A stretch of DNA of 64,000 nucleotides from Gammaproteobacteria bacterium (GTDB lineage Bacteria; Pseudomonadota; Gammaproteobacteria; JAKDMP01): assembly GCA_027018875.1 (NCBI GenBank), contig JALUYA010000015.1, positions 1 to 64,000 on the forward strand. The letters are read 5' to 3'. Numbering within the stretch: position 1 is the first letter of the stretch; every line of letters starts with the position of its first letter. Below are positions 8,986 to 23,783 of this stretch, in pieces. The position numbers were made by a program, and so were the translations under genes. Under the pieces are notes generated by a model that made no database searches, was not told the origin of the DNA, and saw nothing but the letters and a program-made list of their open reading frames with translations.

Positions 8986-9912
8986 TCAGCGATTCTTGTG
9001 GTCTAGTTTAACCAGTAAACGCACCGCCCAATAAGTATCTTCCAGAGTCGGCATAGCGCCCAGTTGCCTGGAAAAACCGCCCCCGGGGCGTTGGCAGGCG
9101 GCAATCGTTCTAAAAATGGCCTGAACATACCGCGGTGCAGCGCCAAATGCGCGCATAAGGTCAACGCCGGCATTGAGCACTTCAATCGTGCTGCTGCGAC
9201 CATGAGGTACGGCGCGGAATCCAAAGAGTGGATCCTCGCAGGAGCGGGAAAAAGCCAGCATTCGCCGATTGGGAAGCAGGTCGGCAACCTGAATCAAGCG
9301 TAAGGCCTGGGCCGTATCCACCAGGTTTGGCGCACCACGAACAAAGGCACCACCCGGTTCCGACATTTCGTCCAGCGCGGTGGCTACAGCCTCTTGGCAT
9401 CGTTCCAGGACGGTAACGACGTGGAACCGCCGGGCAAGATCAATAAACCGAGTTAGCTCCAGCAACCTGGGTGAATCGGCTTCACCCTCTACCTGAGTAA
9501 GGAGAATATCCGATCGCCGGGTAAGCCAGGGAACCACGTCTTGCCGGGGAGCCGCGTCAAGAAAATCCAGAGCCAGTAGAGTGTACCAGGCAGTTGCCAG
9601 GGCGGAATAGGAACCATCATCGCCTTGAATTGCGCCGAGCCAGCGGCGACAAGATTCCGCGTGGGGTATATCGACTTCGAAGAATCGCAGAATAGCCAGG
9701 GCATGATAAGTATCCGCGGCTCCAGGTTCTTCAACACCCCAGCTGCGATAATAGGAAAAGCCTCCGGAGGGTGTTTGACGCCCGAGGACATAACGGATTG
9801 CCGCTTCGCAGTCCACCAGGTTCGTAGTAGACCGGTTTTTGACTAAAACATCTGTAGCGGTCACGCTGAGCCTTGCCTTGCCGAAAACATAACTATTGTA
9901 AGTCACTGACAT
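8986..9912 (-). CDS. Prenyltransferase/squalene-cyclase-like toroid repeat protein (copy 1)
   Basis: About 308 residues of repeated alpha-helical hairpins with Gly-rich turns (QTPSGGFSYYR, QGDDGSYSALATAW, EPGGAFVRG, QRPGGGFSRQLG), the signature of the alpha/alpha toroid shared by protein prenyltransferase beta subunits and terpene cyclases. I see neither the DCTE/QW-box set of squalene cyclases nor the zinc ligands of farnesyltransferase, so a catalytic role is doubtful. A paralogue at 25184-26152 also sits directly before a PEP synthase gene, which suggests a function tied to that enzyme. Start is uncertain: the ATG at 9912 has no clear ribosome site, and an internal GTG near residue 17 follows AAGG. 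Confidence 0.7.
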   Translation of the reverse strand: MSVTYNSYVFGKARLSVTATDVLVKNRSTTNLVDCEAAIRYVLGRQTPSGGFSYYRSWGVEEPGAADTYHALAILRFFEVDIPHAESCRRWLGAIQGDDGSYSALATAWYTLLALDFLDAAPRQDVVPWLTRRSDILLTQVEGEADSPRLLELTRFIDLARRFHVVTVLERCQEAVATALDEMSEPGGAFVRGAPNLVDTAQALRLIQVADLLPNRRMLAFSRSCEDPLFGFRAVPHGRSSTIEVLNAGVDLMRAFGAAPRYVQAIFRTIAACQRPGGGFSRQLGAMPTLEDTYWAVRLLVKLDHKNR

Positions 9913-10160
9913 TGACTAACGGGGGCAATGACACATGCTAAAGGTTTCACATCGATGCAAAATCTCATAAGAAGCAAATATCTTATTGTTATCCAATAAC
10001 TTGAATCCTGGATATCATTCCGTCTCTGGAATAAAGTTAATATAAAACAGCCTCCATCATTTTACATAATATATCTTATGCGCATTAATACCAGGCTAAA
10101 CCCGTAGCTATTTAAATAATCGAATATCGGTTGGAATCGACCTGGGATCAAGTCGGGCCA
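9913..10160. promoter_or_regulatory. AT-rich leader/promoter region of the toroid-ppsA-zwf operon
   Basis: Noncoding and clearly richer in A and T than its neighbours. It should hold the promoter of the minus-strand operon starting at 9912. TTATTG-TTATC-CAATAA at 9983-9999 is a perfect inverted repeat about 70 bp before the start codon and could be an operator. I found no FNR box here, unlike the next intergenic region. No convincing -35/-10 pair can be singled out. Confidence 0.4.
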
Positions 10161-10910
10161 TTACCCCCCTGCTGGGTGGGAACACCGGGTTTCCAGTTCA
10201 AAGCGATCGAGAAGGTGAATTTTTTTCCCTTTTATCGAGATCAAGCCTCGCTCCTGAAAGACTTTCAGAACCCGGCTCAAAGTTTCCGGGGCAATACGCA
10301 GATGGCTGGCGATATCGCGACGGGTCATCTTCAGTGTGAATTCGACGGCCGAATAACCGCGAACTTCCATTTTGGCGCCGAATCCAATCAGAAAAGAGGC
10401 CACCCGATTCTCGGCCCCCTCCAAGGCCATAAACCATTCCTCATGACTAATTTCCGCACTTAGGATGCGCAATAGCCGGCGTTCTAGACCGGGTACGCGT
10501 CGACTCAATGTCAACAATTGCTCGTAGGGTACCCGGCAGACCACCGCGGTATCGAGCACGGTAACCTGGGTAATATGTCGCGCGGCAGCAATGGCATCAA
10601 GTCCGATCAACTCGCCCGGTAAGAGAAATTCAGCCACGTGCTCGGCATTGCTTTCACCGAAAACGGAGGATTTGAGTAGGCCGCTGCGGATGGCATAAAC
10701 CGCCCGAAAGGGTTCGCCGGCCCGGATCAGTGTTTCGCCTTTGTGCAATGGTCCGATATTGTGCACGAACGCTGCAAGCTGCTCGATAAGATCAATAGGT
10801 AGATGATCCGGAATGCACAAAGCCCGTAGGGAGCAATGCAGACAGGCTCCGGTGAGCCGTTGCGGATACGGTGTACTTTTCCCTTCTCCGTCGATCGATT
10901 CTGTATTCAT
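10161..10910 (-). CDS. fnr: FNR/ANR-type oxygen-sensing transcription regulator
   Basis: A 249-residue Crp/Fnr-family activator. Cysteines at 23, 26, 32 and 125 have the spacing of the E. coli FNR ligands (20, 23, 29, 122), so it should hold an oxygen-labile 4Fe-4S cluster. The cyclic-nucleotide-like domain covers about 40-155. The C-terminal helix-turn-helix contains PETLSRV, keeping the Glu, Ser and Arg that read TTGAT half-sites. Start set at the ATG at 10910; a longer TTG reading begins inside the FNR box upstream. The box and a good -10 upstream imply autoregulation. Perfect FNR boxes at 17521, 17812 and 20922 are likely further targets. Confidence 0.93.
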   Translation of the reverse strand: MNTESIDGEGKSTPYPQRLTGACLHCSLRALCIPDHLPIDLIEQLAAFVHNIGPLHKGETLIRAGEPFRAVYAIRSGLLKSSVFGESNAEHVAEFLLPGELIGLDAIAAARHITQVTVLDTAVVCRVPYEQLLTLSRRVPGLERRLLRILSAEISHEEWFMALEGAENRVASFLIGFGAKMEVRGYSAVEFTLKMTRRDIASHLRIAPETLSRVLKVFQERGLISIKGKKIHLLDRFELETRCSHPAGG

Positions 10911-10936
10911 CTGCCGATTCCCCGGTAGCGGCTGCG

Positions 10937-10979
10937 ATTGTAACCGATAACCCGAAAGCCGGTAATTGATCCAGATCAA
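10937..10979 (-). promoter_or_regulatory. FNR-dependent promoter of fnr
   Basis: TTGATCCAGATCAA at 10966-10979 is a perfect palindromic FNR site. On the minus strand TACAAT (10942-10937) lies so that transcription would start near 10930, putting the box centre about 42 bp upstream, the class II activator position. This implies that fnr controls itself. Confidence 0.75.
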
Positions 10980-11004
10980 GATTCATGCCGGGCCGTATTG
11001 TAAT
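10966..11004 (+). promoter_or_regulatory. FNR-dependent promoter toward the 52-residue ORF and xfp
   Basis: The same palindromic FNR site faces the plus strand. TGTAAT at 10999-11004 is a fair -10, giving a start near 11011 and a box centre about 38 bp upstream. One box would therefore serve divergent promoters. The plus-strand promoter fit is weaker than the minus-strand one. Confidence 0.6.
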
Positions 11005-11089
11005 GAGATGGCCGGCATCCATATACTTACATCCATATGCTTATAAAGCGGCTCCCTCGTGCATAGATCCATCTGTTTTAGGAGAAAAC

Positions 11090-11248
11090 GTGTGCACTTA
11101 TTCTCAACAAGCATCCATCGCCGGCAGTATCTGCGCCCTCCCCCGCCAAGTCACGCCCGAGTTACGCAAATCCCGGGCCGATACCAGCCTGGAAACTCTT
11201 CGTTTTGAATACGAGGGCTTGGCGCCGTTCAAGAAATCAGATTTGTAA
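11090..11248 (+). CDS. Small hypothetical protein, 52 residues
   Basis: Starts with GTG at 11090, eight bases after a strong AGGAG, and ends with TAA at 11248, 87 bp before phosphoketolase. The product begins MCTYSQQAS and ends FKKSDL; it has two cysteines and a charged second half, with no membrane segment. I recognise no family. Its place directly after an FNR-type promoter and ahead of xfp suggests it is transcribed with xfp under low oxygen. A leader peptide or small regulator is possible but not shown. Confidence 0.5.
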   Translation: MCTYSQQASIAGSICALPRQVTPELRKSRADTSLETLRFEYEGLAPFKKSDL

Positions 11249-11335
11249 CTAGTTTATTCCTCTTTTTAAGCTTTCCCGGTCGGGGTCCCTGCCCGGGTAT
11301 TCATTCATCCCTTTAGGTATTTTTGGAGTTTCATC

Positions 11336-13726
11336 ATGACCGCTTCTACTCCCCGACCCACCATCCTGGATCCCGACACCCTGAAGAAAATGGATGATTA
11401 TTGGCATGCAAGCCTATACTTGTGCGCCGGGATGCTGTATCTGCGTGACAATCCTTTGCTTAAGCAACCACTGAAACCTGAGCATATCAAGCGCCGGTTA
11501 TTGGGCCATTGGGGTTCGGATCCGGCCCAGACCTTTGCATGGGTCCATCTCAACCGCCTCATCCGCGAGCGGGATTTGAATATGATCTACCTCTCGGGTC
11601 CCGGCCACGGTGCTCCCTCCATGCTTTCCCAAGCCTATCTTGAAGGTACTTATTCGGAGACTTACCCCGACAAAAGCCAGGATGAAGAAGGTATGCAGCG
11701 GTTTTTCAAGGAATTTTCCTTCCCGGGAGGGTTGGGCAGTCATTGTACGCCGGAGACGCCGGGATCGATCCATGAAGGGGGGGAGCTGGGATATTCCCTA
11801 TCCCATGCCTTTGGCGCCGTATTTGACAATCCGGATTTAATCGCCGCCGTTGTCATTGGCGATGGCGAAGCGGAAACCGGCCCACTGGCCACATCATGGC
11901 ACTCGAACAAATTCCTTAATCCGGCCCGTGACGGCGCGGTACTTCCCATCCTGAATTTGAATGGCTACAAGATCGCCAATCCAACGATTCTCGCACGTAT
12001 TCCCCATGAGCAGCTCGAGAATCTGTTTTTGGGCTACGGATACCAGCCTTATTTTGTTGCAGGCGATGACCCCGAGACCCTGCATCAGGTCATGGCCCAA
12101 ACCCTGGATGGGGTGTTCGATGAGATTCACTCCATTCAACATCGGGCACGTACGGGAGGCCGGGTTTCGGGAGTTCGTTGGCCGCTGATTGTCTTACGTA
12201 CTCCCAAGGGTTGGACTTGTCCCCGGGAAATCGATGGTCACCGGCTGGAAGGGTTCTGGCGCGCACATCAGATTCCCTTTCAGGTACAGAGCAATCCGGC
12301 GCACCTTGCGCTCCTCGAACAATGGCTGCGAAGCTATGAACCGGAACGGCTGTTCGATAGTCAAGGGCGATTGATCGCGGGGTTGCGTGATCTGGCCCCT
12401 AAAGGGAGGCGTCGCATGAGCGCCAACCCGGTCACCAATGGTGGCCTGGTGCGCAAGGCGCTCAAGCTGCCGAATTTCCGGGAACATGGCGTAGATGTGC
12501 CCCAACCCGGACAGGTGGAGGTGGAGAACACCCGGGTTCTTGGCCGTTTCCTGCGCGATGTGATGCGCGAGAACATATCCAACTTTCGGGTCTTTGGCCC
12601 CGACGAAACGGCCTCGAATCGGCTGGATGATTTATACCAGGTGACGCAGAAGACTTGGCTTGCCGAAATTCGGCCCGAGGATGCCGATGGCAGCCACTTG
12701 GCGCCCGACGGGCGGGTGATGGAAATGCTGAGTGAGCATACTTTGGAGGGCTGGCTGGAAGGGTATCTACTAACCGGACGCCATGGGCTGCTGTCCTCTT
12801 ATGAGGCCTTTATTCATGTCATCGATTCAATGTTCAACCAACATGCAAAATGGCTTGAGAAATGTCTTGTGGTCCCCTGGCGCACCCGGATCTCATCGCT
12901 CAATCTTCTGGTAAGTTCAATTGTCTGGCGTCAGGATCACAACGGGTTTTCACACCAGGATCCAGGTTTTCTCGATGTAGTCACCAACAAGAGCCCGAGC
13001 GTCACGCGCATTTATCTCCCTCCCGACGCGAACTGCCTGCTTTCGGTAGCCGATCACTGCTTGCGCAGCACGCATTATGTCAACGTAATCGTGGCCGATA
13101 AGGAGCCGCATTTGCAATACTTGTCGATGGCGGAAGCGGTTACACACTGTACCAAGGGGATCGGCATCTGGGACTGGGCCAGCAATGATGGCAACGATGA
13201 GCCCGATATCATCATGGCGGCGGCGGGAGATGTGCCGACGCAGGAAGCCCTGGCAGCCACGGCGCTGCTGCGCGAGTATTTTCCTAATCTCAAGGTACGT
13301 TTTATCAATGTGGTCGATCTGTTTCGCCTGCTCCCGGCAAGCGAACACGAGCATGGTTTGTCGGATCACGACTTTAACGGGTTATTTACGCTGGATAAAC
13401 CCATTGTATTTAACTTCCATGGTTATCCTTATCTGATTCACAAGCTGGTCTATCGGCGCGAGAACTCCCGCAATATTCATGTCCGCGGCTACAAGGAACA
13501 CGGTAACATCAACACCCCGATGGGACTTGCCATTCGTAACCAGATTGATCGTTTCAACCTGGTGATCGATGTCATCGATCGAGTGCCGCAGTTGCAAGTA
13601 GCCGGTGCTCATATCAAAGAGCGGATGAAGGACGCAATTATCACCAGCCTTGACTTTGCCGCCCGAGAAGGTTACGACCAACCCGAGTTCAGCAGTTGGA
13701 AATGGCCTTACGAGCGTGACGGGTAA
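11336..13726 (+). CDS. xfp: Xylulose-5-phosphate/fructose-6-phosphate phosphoketolase
   Basis: Thiamine-diphosphate enzyme that splits xylulose 5-phosphate (or fructose 6-phosphate) with phosphate into acetyl phosphate and glyceraldehyde 3-phosphate (or erythrose 4-phosphate). The 796 residues match the family length. GPGHGAPS near the N-terminus, [19 protein letters not shown] for diphosphate/metal binding and [11 protein letters not shown] are characteristic. GGAG precedes the ATG. Acetyl phosphate can go to acetate kinase (31590) for ATP or to the phosphotransacylase (30604). The upstream FNR box suggests induction at low oxygen. The gene converges with the Acd-Pat gene, which handles acetyl-CoA. 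Confidence 0.96.
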
Positions 13727-17641: not shown

Positions 17642-17815
17642 ATGCCGGGTGCGCCGCACAAGGGCAAGACGCTAATTCGAGGCGGTGCATCCTTCCGGGC
17701 GATTTACGCCACCCGAGGTGGTTCGCCGGGGTTCCCGCGGGTAATTCCGGAATCGAGTCAGCATATGCCTGCCAACTGTTGCGTGTTTCGGCTACTTTAC
17801 AGTTGCATGAATTGA
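17642..17815 (+). pseudogene. Remnant of a second FNR/CRP-family regulator
   Basis: Codons 17654-17722 read PHKGKTLIRGGASFRAIYA followed by TRGG, matching residues 55-77 of the intact FNR at 10161-10910 (LHKGETLIRAGEPFRAVYA then IRSG) at about 15 of 23 positions. Nothing like the cysteine region precedes it, and no effector or DNA-binding region follows before the TGA at 17815. It is therefore a short decayed piece of an FNR paralogue. An FNR box lies upstream (17521), as at the intact fnr. The open frame is not expected to give a functional protein. Confidence 0.65.
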
Positions 17816-17850
17816 TTCAAATCAAGATTCAGAGCAATTTTTCTTGTATT
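17812..17850 (+). promoter_or_regulatory. FNR box and -10 upstream of the 120-residue ORF and galT
   Basis: TTGATTCAAATCAA at 17812-17825 is a perfect FNR palindrome. TGTATT at 17845-17850 is a modest -10, giving a start near 17857 and a box centre about 38 bp upstream. The first start codon downstream is at 17912. The box is clear; the -10 is approximate. Confidence 0.65.
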
Positions 17851-17911
17851 GGTCTCTACGGTACCCCATACTTCTTGTAACCAAGTTCAACCTTACGTTT
17901 CCGGAGGTACC

Positions 17912-18274
17912 ATGGACTTATCCCAAAGGCAAGCGCCCTTTGATCTTGAGGTTTGGCTGCTCATCCCCGGATCACGATTTCCCGCCGCCGGCGTCGCCCA
18001 CGCTCTTGCCGGTCTGGCAGCACCCGAGTTTCAACTCGGAGATTGTCGTGAAAGTGCCCGATTGGTCCATTCACGGAATCACCCCGGGTACGCCCACTGG
18101 CGTTGCCGCTTTCGGTTGACCGGAGCAAAAGATGATGCGTTTTCCACCATACGGCTACTCAAACGCCTGGTCGGTGCCGACTTGGACATCCTTCGTTTCG
18201 AATGCCTGGCACCGCCAAAGGAATTGGGTTACATGCAGGTCGACTCCCCCCCTGCCCATGCGGCCGTGTCATAG
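17912..18274 (+). CDS. Hypothetical protein, 120 residues, FNR-linked
   Basis: Starts at an ATG seven bases after GGAGG and about 55 bp from the predicted FNR-driven transcript start. The product begins MDLSQRQAPFDLEVWLLIPG and looks like a compact soluble alpha/beta fold with strands at FDLEVWLLI, HWRCRFRLT and DLDILRFEC. I recognise no family; a small ligand-binding domain is a guess. It lies 187 bp before the uridylyltransferase gene on the same strand and may share its transcript. The strong ribosome site and the FNR promoter argue that it is real. Confidence 0.65.
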   Translation: MDLSQRQAPFDLEVWLLIPGSRFPAAGVAHALAGLAAPEFQLGDCRESARLVHSRNHPGYAHWRCRFRLTGAKDDAFSTIRLLKRLVGADLDILRFECLAPPKELGYMQVDSPPAHAAVS

Positions 18275-20921: not shown

Positions 20922-20963
20922 TTGATATAGATCAACGTTTTATTACGGGTTCCGGCTTACAAT
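20922..20963 (+). promoter_or_regulatory. FNR-dependent promoter of the H+-ATPase gene
   Basis: TTGATATAGATCAA at 20922-20935 is a perfect FNR box and TACAAT at 20958-20963 a near-consensus -10. A start at about 20970 puts the box centre 41.5 bp upstream, the textbook class II position. The leader would be about 186 bases, longer than usual, with no clear gene in it. Confidence 0.8.
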
Positions 20964-21155
20964 TACTTCGATGGCGAATAAAGTCGCAGCCGGGTTTATG
21001 TTGTTTGATCCGGTCGTGAGTTTCCACTTGTTCGCCAGGGCTGTTTGAGTTATCTACAACGCGGTTATATCACGGCGTATCGATCCCCGAACTGGTTGTT
21101 AGTCAGAATCCGGACCGACACGTAGATGAATATCGGCGAACAGGAGATCACGAGG

Positions 21156-23783
21156 ATGCCCGAGGTCAATAATGCAGCACCGGCCCTGGTGGATGATGCG
21201 GTCAAGGAATATTCACTCGATAAACTATTTGAACACCTGGGATCCGGCAAGGAAGGACTCACTCCCGCCGAGGCCCAGCGGCGTCTCACAGCCTACGGTC
21301 CCAACGCCCTTGTCGAGCGGAATACCCCCTTGTGGCGGCGGCTTCTTGCCTATTTCTGGGGTCCTATTCCCTGGATGATCGAAATTGCCGCGGTTCTTTC
21401 GGCAGCAAACAGCGACTGGAAAAGCTTTGGTGTTATTTTCGCCATGCTGGTCATCAACGGCGGCATCGGCTTTTGGGAAGAGAAGGGGGCCGTAGATGCG
21501 CTCGAAGCGCTTAAGAATCAGTTAGCACTCAAGGCAAGAGTTCTGCGTGGGGGGCAATGGCTGGAGATCGATGCCGCCACGCTGGTGCCCGGTGATATCG
21601 TGCGGTTGCGTCTTGGCAATGTGTTACCCGCCGATGTCAAGCTTTACGAAGGGGATTACCTGGCGGTGGACCAGTCCGCCCTAACCGGTGAGTCGTTGCC
21701 GGTTAATAAAAAACCGGGTGATATCGCCTTCTCGGGTACGATCGCCAAGCAGGGGGAGATGCTCGGCTTGGTCTATGCTACCGGGGAATCTACTTTCTTC
21801 GGTCGTACGGCCAAGCTGGTACAGCAGGCCGCCCCCATCTCGCATTTTCAGAAAGCGGTTCTATCCATCGGTAATTTTCTGATTTTCCTGGCGGTTGTCC
21901 TTTCTATCATTCTCATCGTAGTGGAATTGAGCCGCGGACTATCCTTTCTTGAGCTGATGGCCTTTGTTCTGGTCGTGGTCGTAGCCTCGATCCCGGTGGC
22001 AATGCCCGCCGTACTTTCGGTCACCATGGCACTGGGGGCGCTCGCCCTTTCCCGAATGAAGGCAATCGTTTCCAAGCTGACTTCCATCGAGGAAATGGCT
22101 GGTGTCGATATTCTCTGTTCCGACAAGACCGGTACGCTCACCCAGAACAAGCTCACTCTAGGCGAAACGGCGGTTTTCGATGCGCCCGATGCCCAGGCCG
22201 TGATCCTGGCTGCCGCCCTGGCTTCCAAAGCCGAGGACACGGATGCCATCGATACCGCGGTGTTGAACGGGCTGCAGGATCGAGACACGGATCTGAAGGG
22301 CTATCAACAACTTAAATTCATCCCCTTCGACCCCGTTTCCAAACGCACCGAAGCAACCATTCAAGGGGATGGTGGCACGCAGTTCCGGGTCACCAAGGGT
22401 GCCCCTCAGGTGATTATGGATCTGGCTAAATTGAGCGATCCCGTATGTAAACATGCACAAAAAATTATCGAGGAGACCGCCAAGAAGGGATTTCGCACCT
22501 TGGGAGTCGGGCGTTCCACGGACGATGGCAAAACCTGGACTTTCCTCGGCATCCTGCCCCTGTTTGATCCCCCCCGTGAAGATTCCCGGGGTACCATCGA
22601 GAAAGCCCGGGCACATGGCATCGAGGTCAAGATGGTGACCGGGGATCACCAGGCCATCGGCCGCGAAATTGCCGGTGAACTGGGGTTGGGCACCGGGATC
22701 ATCCCCGTTGACGAACGTCTTTCCCGGGTTGCCGCCGGCGGCGCCGCCACATCGGATCTGGCCGAAGCCGTTGAGAAGGCCGACGGCTTTGCCCAGGTGT
22801 TTCCGGAGCACAAATACGCGATTGTCAAAATACTGCAGAATCGAGGACATTTGGTCGCCATGACCGGCGACGGAGTCAACGATGCTCCAGCCCTCAAACA
22901 GGCCGATGTGGGCATTGCCGTCTCCGGAGCCACCGATGCCGCCCGCAGTGCCGCCAGCCTAATTCTTACCGCCCCGGGGCTAAGCGTGATCGTGCGTGCG
23001 GTGGAGGAAGCCCGGCGCATTTTCGAACGCATGATGAGCTATACCGTGTATCGCATCGCCATGACCCTGGATATCCTGTTTTTCGTCGTAGTGGCGATGC
23101 TGATCTTCAACAGTTACCCCCTTACTGCAATCATGGTTGTGTTGCTCTCACTGCTCGACGACATCCCGATCATGGCTATCGCCTGGGATAACACCATGGT
23201 GCAACCTCAACCGGTGCGCTGGGAAATGCCTCGGGTCATCGGCATTTCAACGGCCATGGGGGCTCTCGCTTTCGGAGGCACCTTTATCCTCTATCTGGTG
23301 TCGCGGTTCCTGTTCAATATGCCGCTGTCCGAGGTGCAGACCATCATGTTTCTGCAGCTTATCGCCGGGGGACATCTACTGTTGTTCCTGACTCGGGTAC
23401 GCGGCCCCTTTTGGCGCCCGCCCTACCCCGCCAGGCCCTTGTTGCTGGCCATCGTGGGAACCCAACTTGTCGGTGCCGCCATGGCCGGTTTCGGCTGGCT
23501 GATGCCCGCCATCCCCTGGACGGTGGTCGGATTGGTCTGGGCTTATAACCTAATCTGGATGGTGGCGGCGGATTTCTCGAAACTAGGCATTCACCGGCTG
23601 TTGAATAGCCGGGCCTTACATCAAAGTCGTTTTCTGCGGGTAATGAATGCCTCCTTGCAGCCGTCTATAACCCAAATACGGCGTGAAGCCGGAGTACTCC
23701 ACCGCGAGCTGGGTACCCTCGAGCGGGCCGAAGGCCGGGAGGTACGGCAAATTGCGGGTCGGTTACGGCACTCCGGAAAATGA
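21156..23783 (+). CDS. P3A-type plasma-membrane H+-ATPase
   Basis: An 875-residue P-type ATPase of the fungal/plant plasma-membrane H+ pump class. The actuator domain has LTGESLPVNK; the phosphorylated aspartate is at about 323 in CSDKTGTLTQN; MTGDGVNDAPALKQADVGIA forms the hinge; IPVAMPAVLSVTMALGA is the M4 ion-binding helix. It exports protons using ATP, helping hold cytoplasmic pH. The start at 21156 (MPEVNN) follows AGGAG by nine bases; an in-frame ATG ten codons earlier lacks such a site. The FNR-type promoter suggests use when respiration is off and fermentation acids build up. Followed directly by the phosphohexomutase. Confidence 0.93.
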   Translation: MPEVNNAAPALVDDAVKEYSLDKLFEHLGSGKEGLTPAEAQRRLTAYGPNALVERNTPLWRRLLAYFWGPIPWMIEIAAVLSAANSDWKSFGVIFAMLVINGGIGFWEEKGAVDALEALKNQLALKARVLRGGQWLEIDAATLVPGDIVRLRLGNVLPADVKLYEGDYLAVDQSALTGESLPVNKKPGDIAFSGTIAKQGEMLGLVYATGESTFFGRTAKLVQQAAPISHFQKAVLSIGNFLIFLAVVLSIILIVVELSRGLSFLELMAFVLVVVVASIPVAMPAVLSVTMALGALALSRMKAIVSKLTSIEEMAGVDILCSDKTGTLTQNKLTLGETAVFDAPDAQAVILAAALASKAEDTDAIDTAVLNGLQDRDTDLKGYQQLKFIPFDPVSKRTEATIQGDGGTQFRVTKGAPQVIMDLAKLSDPVCKHAQKIIEETAKKGFRTLGVGRSTDDGKTWTFLGILPLFDPPREDSRGTIEKARAHGIEVKMVTGDHQAIGREIAGELGLGTGIIPVDERLSRVAAGGAATSDLAEAVEKADGFAQVFPEHKYAIVKILQNRGHLVAMTGDGVNDAPALKQADVGIAVSGATDAARSAASLILTAPGLSVIVRAVEEARRIFERMMSYTVYRIAMTLDILFFVVVAMLIFNSYPLTAIMVVLLSLLDDIPIMAIAWDNTMVQPQPVRWEMPRVIGISTAMGALAFGGTFILYLVSRFLFNMPLSEVQTIMFLQLIAGGHLLLFLTRVRGPFWRPPYPARPLLLAIVGTQLVGAAMAGFGWLMPAIPWTVVGLVWAYNLIWMVAADFSKLGIHRLLNSRALHQSRFLRVMNASLQPSITQIRREAGVLHRELGTLERAEGREVRQIAGRLRHSGK

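What the first reader, a model, noticed from the sequence alone, without database searches (positions are those of the whole stretch)
10937..11004. One FNR box between two -10 elements: divergent fnr/xfp control
TTGATCCAGATCAA at 10966 is flanked by TACAAT on the minus strand and TGTAAT on the plus strand, each at close to class II distance. FNR would drive its own gene and the phosphoketolase side at once. FNR is usually described as repressing its own gene in E. coli, so autoactivation would be a switch-like variant.
Basis: partly seen in the sequence, partly recalled or inferred. Interest (0 to 1): 0.6.

Follow-up and report, generated by a model that had tools for sequence, protein, structure and literature searches.

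The report
FNR box between fnr and phosphoketolase
A single binding site for an oxygen-sensing regulator sits between the regulator's own gene and a sugar-splitting enzyme gene and probably switches both on when oxygen runs out, an arrangement that resembles known cases in other bacteria.

Summary
The box TTGATCCAGATCAA (10966-10979) is real and very probably an FNR site: this genome holds 15 exact TTGATNNNNATCAA sites against 0 for the reversed control pattern. Around those 15 boxes, TANNNT -10 elements pile up exactly 22 bp from the box (centre -41.5): 8 of 30 sides, background 1.26%, 0 of 2000 shuffles. So class II spacing is common in this genome. The fnr side fits within one base (TACAAT, gap 23). 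Best reading: class II activation of fnr and class I activation of a leader-ORF/xfp unit. Auto-activation by this very protein is less sure: the genome has three four-cysteine FNR paralogues, and this one alone of 46 aligned FNRs lacks the activating-region-3 glycine. FNR auto-activation at a class II site is published (Herbaspirillum fnr1, PMC5934665), as is FNR/FixK-family control of phosphoketolase. The divergent pairing was seen in no other locus examined. New member of a known kind.

The parts
10966..10979 (.). FNR box TTGATCCAGATCAA (perfect palindromic half-sites)
   Evidence: 15 such sites in the genome against 0 reversed-pattern controls
10937..10942 (-). putative -10 TACAAT of fnr, 23 bp from the box (box centre about -42.5; predicted start near 10930)
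   Evidence: one base off the genome's modal gap of 22
10161..10910 (-). fnr-A: FNR-type regulator, 249 aa, ATG at 10910; cysteines C23, C26, C32, C125; recognition residues E209, S212, R213
   Evidence: NCBIfam Fnr 184 bits (below the curated cut-off 228); aligned with FNR of the 5cvr structure and with E. coli FNR
11022..11027 (+). putative -10 TATACT of the xfp side, 42 bp from the box (box centre -61.5; predicted start near 11034)
10998..11003 (+). putative -35 TTGTAA paired with TATACT, spacer 18
   Evidence: TTGTAW sits at the same offset after the box at 17812
10999..11004 (+).
   Evidence: gap 19; 0 of 30 box sides have TANNNT there
11090..11248 (+). 52-aa open frame (GTG start, AGGAG upstream) between the box and xfp; no relative found
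11336..13726 (+). xfp: xylulose-5-P/fructose-6-P phosphoketolase, 796 aa
   Evidence: NCBIfam and Pfam XFP_N, XFP, XFP_C

Best explanation
The 10966 box is a site for an FNR-family [4Fe-4S] regulator. When oxygen is absent, the bound dimer activates fnr-A leftwards as a class II promoter (box in place of the -35, TACAAT as -10, start near 10930) and activates rightwards, as a class I promoter (box at -61.5, TTGTAA/TATACT, start near 11034), a transcript that carries a 52-residue open frame and the phosphoketolase gene. The activator may be FNR-A itself, but one or both of its paralogues FNR-B and FNR-C are at least as likely, which would make fnr-A part of an FNR-activates-FNR network rather than a simple self-loop. 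Shown: the sequence, the box's genome-wide excess, and the spacing statistics. Inferred: binding, start sites, direction of regulation, and which paralogue acts.
For: Box exact and over-represented, 15 to 0. Modal -10 gap of 22 in this genome (8 of 30 sides, background 36 of 2850, 0 of 2000 shuffles reach 8 at any gap). TACAAT at gap 23 on the fnr side and TATACT at gap 42 on the xfp side; gap 42 holds TANNNT on 2 of 30 sides, this one and the box at C48:34697. E. coli FNR sites at activated promoters with a known start lie at -41.5 +/- 4 in 19 of 23 cases, listed from -40.5 to -45.5, with one at -60.5 (PMC3688515, passages), so -42.5 is ordinary and -61.5 is rare but known. FNR-A has the four ligand cysteines and the E--SR recognition residues. 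The other boxes flank anaerobic genes: ubiT/ubiUV, hemN, nosR and a molybdopterin enzyme.
Against: The joint claim rests on one sequence; no relative with the same fnr/xfp pairing was found, so conservation could not be used. TANNNT at gaps 21-23 arises by chance on about 4% of sides. Gap 42 has only 2 of 30 sides, no clear excess (other gaps hold 2 or 3 as well). FNR-A lacks the activating-region-3 glycine. 308 bp lie between the predicted start and xfp's ATG, with a weak terminator-like hairpin at 11280-11296. Of 44 other FNR genes none has TANNNT 19-24 bp past an upstream box.
Confidence: 0.48

Rival explanations
1. Only fnr-A is FNR-activated (class II); xfp has its own promoter or only background transcription.
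For: The fnr side fits the genome's dominant geometry, while the xfp side needs a rare class I position. In the 110 xfp loci read the only exact box besides this one lies downstream of xfp (L155), so there is no conserved FNR-xfp link.
Against: TATACT sits at exactly -61.5 with a -35 18 bp upstream; FNR/FixK-family control of phosphoketolase is known in Rhodopseudomonas and Bradyrhizobium.
Confidence: 0.25
2. The box represses fnr-A, as in E. coli, or represses one side while activating the other.
For: Negative self-control is the E. coli textbook case (recalled); two of the 44 relatives' fnr genes have an exact box about 20 bp before the start codon, a repressing place.
Against: Here the box is about 62 bp before the start codon with a good -10 between box and gene, the activating geometry of the genome's other boxes.
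Confidence: 0.12
3. Symmetric class II on both sides, as the reader proposed (TACAAT and TGTAAT).
For: Both hexamers exist; a truly symmetric case, gap 22 on both sides, occurs elsewhere in this genome between ubiT and ubiU.
Against: TGTAAT at gap 19 lacks A at position 2; 0 of 30 sides have TANNNT at gap 19; -38.5 is outside the -40.5 to -45.5 that I saw listed for E. coli class II sites.
Confidence: 0.08
4. Chance palindrome without function.
For: Three of the 15 exact sites lie inside coding frames with no -10 at 22 bp and look like chance.
Against: Intergenic, divergent, next to an fnr-type gene, -10 one base off the modal gap.
Confidence: 0.07

Closest known systems
Herbaspirillum seropedicae fnr1 promoter (PMC5934665; abstract and passages read)
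   Same: Three FNR paralogues in one genome; an FNR box at -42 (class II) upstream of an fnr gene; activation by Fnr1 itself and by Fnr3; paralogues that differ most in activating region 3.
   Different: No phosphoketolase on the other side was mentioned in the passages read; regulation there was measured, here it is inferred.
Rhizobium leguminosarum/R. etli fnrN (PMC7888657; passages read)
   Same: Positive self-control through an anaerobox.
   Different: R. leguminosarum has a second, proximal box that represses; no second box of at most one mismatch lies near fnr-A's start here, the other one being inside the gene at 10231.
E. coli fnr (L192)
   Same: Four-cysteine FNR with a box upstream of its own gene.
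   Different: E. coli's box is centred about 26 bp before the start codon (repression, recalled); here about 62 bp with a -10 in between.
FixK-controlled phosphoketolases: alphaproteobacterial FixK core regulon (PMC2908626, Table 1), Rhodopseudomonas palustris Rpal_1869 (PMC3050613, passages), Bradyrhizobium bll2518 with a box at -89 (PMC9104804, passage)
   Same: A phosphoketolase gene under an FNR/FixK-type box.
   Different: FixK lacks the iron-sulphur cluster; the passages seen do not show divergence from an fnr gene.

Membership tests
FNR regulator (protein 10161-10910) | four cluster-ligand cysteines, C-x2-C-x5-C plus a central C | tested here: met
   C23, C26, C32, C125
FNR regulator (protein 10161-10910) | recognition helix E--SR that reads TTGAT | tested here: met
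   E209, S212, R213 invariant in the alignments; that these read TTGAT is recalled
FNR regulator (protein 10161-10910) | NCBIfam PRK11161 (Fnr subfamily) curated cut-off of 228 bits | tested here: not met
   184.2 bits, the best family by far; the paralogues B (180.7) and C (205.2) also fall short, so I write 'FNR-type'
FNR regulator (protein 10161-10910) | oxygen-labile [4Fe-4S] cluster | not testable with these tools
   needs the purified protein
class II FNR-activated promoter (fnr side) | box centred near -41.5 and a -10 about 22 bp past the box | tested here: met
   gap 23, i.e. about -42.5; E. coli class II sites are listed from -40.5 to -45.5
class II FNR-activated promoter (fnr side) | oxygen-dependent transcript start at the predicted place | not testable with these tools
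   no expression data
   TGTAAT at gap 19
class I FNR-activated promoter (xfp side) | box centred at -61.5 or further, with -35 and -10 hexamers | tested here: met
   TATACT at gap 42, TTGTAA 18 bp before it; functional proof lacking

The most novel reading that the evidence does not exclude
The three FNR paralogues of this genome form a mutually activating set in which the activating regions are divided between them: FNR-A keeps activating region 1 but has lost the activating-region-3 glycine (unique among 46), FNR-C keeps activating region 3 but has an altered activating region 1 (W-R-K where nearly all have R-G-F/Y), and A:C heterodimers, oriented on the box, would activate class II promoters such as that of fnr-A, while FNR-A alone could serve the class I xfp promoter.
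Probability: 0.06. Interest if true: 0.65.

Novelty: new member of a known kind. Interest (0 to 1): 0.3.

Why it matters
If true, one oxygen-regulated site commits the cell at once to more of an oxygen sensor and to phosphoketolase, which yields acetyl phosphate without NAD reduction (recalled), a sensible pairing for life without oxygen. Three FNR-type genes that each lie behind an FNR box suggest layered positive feedback, of which only a few cases have been worked out (Herbaspirillum, rhizobia).

Tried and rejected
Conservation of the intergenic region could not be tested: the only other genome of the family (G001) has no xfp match at E <= 1e-100 and only a weak Crp/Fnr match; the search for related loci with FNR-A in genome contigs found none. 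The second scan, with xfp, gave 80 named loci. Reading those 80 plus the 30 best (110 in all, this locus included), only this one has an FNR homologue beside xfp apart from a weak partial hit in L106; the one other exact box lies downstream of xfp (L155), and one-mismatch boxes upstream of xfp occur in a few, the nearest in L118 (Thiogranum sp., about 120 bp before the match). Not all 89 xfp-bearing genomes were read.

Rfam has no match in 9850-11400 at E <= 1. The 52-aa frame has no relative among 20168 frames of fetched loci, no Pfam family and no second copy in its genome. Its C-terminus resembles weakly that of the 120-aa frame at 17912-18274 (score 33; 14 of 1000 shuffles reach it); not pursued.

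This counts against any claim that self-control by FNR is general in this class. A tree of 46 FNRs gave long branches for A, B and C and no firm placing.

Positive-autoregulation search with FNR gave six papers, none on point by its listing. I make no claim that the fnr/xfp pairing is absent from print beyond.

Full report
Observation. The box TTGATCCAGATCAA occupies 10966-10979, between the ATG of an FNR-type gene on the minus strand (10910) and, 357 bp to the right, the ATG of a phosphoketolase gene (11336) on the plus strand. TACAAT (minus, 10942-10937) and TGTAAT (plus, 10999-11004) are present as stated. In the window's genome (2.21 Mb, 54 contigs) 15 exact TTGATNNNNATCAA sites occur and 0 of the reversed control pattern; with one mismatch it is 97 against 10. 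Four of the 15 lie in this window, at 10966, 17521, 17812 and 20922.

Spacing test. For all 15 boxes I read both flanks (30 sides) and asked at which distance TANNNT occurs. At 22 bp, which puts the box centre at -41.5, 8 of 30 sides have it; the background over the other gaps is 36 of 2850, and in 2000 shuffles of the flanks no gap reached 8, the largest count being 5. One of the eight (L038 minus) points back into the 3' end of a glycosyltransferase gene and may be chance. Three boxes lie inside coding frames and have no such -10. So this genome uses class II FNR promoters, as E. coli mostly does (19 of 23 activated promoters with known starts at -41.5 +/- 4, one at -60.5; PMC3688515, passages).

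The two sides of 10966. The fnr side has TACAAT at gap 23, one base from the mode. The xfp side has nothing at 21-23. TATACT at 11022-11027 lies at gap 42, the class I position -61.5 (class definition: PMC6343905, passages), with TTGTAA 18 bp upstream. One other side in the genome (C48:34697, minus) has a -10 at gap 42; two of 30 is not an excess in itself. The box at 17812 shares with 10966 the run AATTGATYCARATCAAGATTCA and has TTGTAT at the same offset and CATACT at gap 41, which suggests a common promoter plan, though weakly. With starts near 10930 and 11034 two polymerases would hardly overlap, whereas two class II polymerases on one dimer probably would (inference).

The regulator. The protein has four cysteines at the FNR positions (C23, C26, C32, C125) and E209, S212, R213 in the recognition helix. 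It scores 184 bits to NCBI's Fnr model, below its cut-off of 228. It is not the only one: the genome holds FNR-B (C1:64364, minus) and FNR-C (C1:16663, plus), both with the cysteine pattern, and a fourth Crp/Fnr protein without it. FNR-C follows ubiU, ubiV and a ubiD-type gene in one direction; the box C1:12723 lies before ubiU, with -10s at gap 22 on both sides, ubiT being the divergent gene. FNR-B follows hemN; a box with TATCAT at gap 22 lies about 3.4 kb upstream, before two cytochrome-region genes in the same direction. Thus each of the three FNR-type genes lies behind an FNR box, directly (A) or at a distance that assumes read-through (B, C).

Which FNR acts. In an alignment of 46 FNRs the glycine at E. 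coli position 85, in the activating-region-3 loop, is kept in 45; only FNR-A has N (position counted on the E. coli sequence; its assignment to activating region 3 is recalled, and that region 3 contacts sigma-70 at class II promoters is stated in PMC5934665). Its activating-region-1 positions are ordinary (S76, T121, R184, Y186, S187). FNR-C is the reverse: G-D-E in the loop, but W-R-K at 184-186. In Herbaspirillum, exchanging region 3 of Fnr1 for that of Fnr3 cut activation of the fnr1 promoter by about 65%. So FNR-A may be a poor class II activator, and its gene may depend on a paralogue. This is inference.

Comparison with what is known. Auto-activation by FNR at a class II site is published for Herbaspirillum fnr1 (box at -42; PMC5934665, abstract and passages) and reported for rhizobial fnrN (PMC7888657, passages); fnrL autoregulation is mentioned for Dinoroseobacter (PMC5398030, passage). 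Phosphoketolase under FNR/FixK-type control is predicted in the alphaproteobacterial FixK core regulon (PMC2908626, Table 1); Rpal_1869 transcript is lower in a fixK mutant in two of the six columns shown, one of them 9.4-fold, and about unchanged or higher in the rest (PMC3050613, passage); bll2518 of Bradyrhizobium falls in a table of lowered genes with a motif at -89 (PMC9104804, passage). What I have not seen elsewhere is the two genes sharing one box: 0 of the 109 other xfp loci read.

Against general self-activation. Of 44 FNR genes of the same class (50 loci given, 6 dropped), 11 have a box within 350 bp upstream, 12 within 350 bp downstream, and none has TANNNT at 19-24 bp past an upstream box (one at 25 bp, L184). 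E. coli fnr has its box about 26 bp before the start codon.

Verdict. The box and a class II fnr promoter are well supported by sequence; a class I xfp promoter is plausible; symmetric class II is unlikely; self-activation by this FNR is undecided. Ordinary in kind, with an uncommon gene pairing and an interesting set of three FNRs.

Noticed in passing
L076 2457-7880 (G000:C1, box at C1:12723-12736): ubiT and ubiU-ubiV-ubiD-type-fnrC diverge from one FNR box with a -10 exactly 22 bp away on both sides: the truly symmetric class II case in this genome.
   Followed up: partly
L077 3832-8055 (G000:C1, box at C1:68541-68554): hemN followed by a second FNR-type gene (FNR-B), with a class II-spaced box about 3.4 kb upstream in the same direction.
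   Followed up: partly
window 10164-10910 and L076 7098-7877: FNR-A lacks the otherwise invariant activating-region-3 glycine (45 of 46 have it); FNR-C has an altered activating region 1 (W-R-K).
   Followed up: partly
window 11090-11248: 52-aa open frame with a good ribosome site between the box and xfp; no relatives found.
   Followed up: partly
window 17812-18274: FNR box followed by a 120-aa open frame with a sub-threshold match (E 0.0064) to the C-terminal domain of bacterial isocitrate dehydrogenase; promoter context resembles that of 10966.
   Followed up: partly
window 20922-23783: Exact FNR box with TACAAT at gap 22, upstream of a P-type cation ATPase gene.
   Followed up: no
L079 (G000:C48:27000-36815): Cluster with nosZ start, nosR-type, apbE-type, HiPIP-like and arsenite-oxidase-type molybdopterin genes, with three exact FNR boxes within 3.7 kb.
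   Followed up: no
L039 1480-1530 (G000:C40:31636): An exact box just after a ferredoxin gene lies inside a longer inverted repeat and may be a terminator rather than an FNR site.
   Followed up: no
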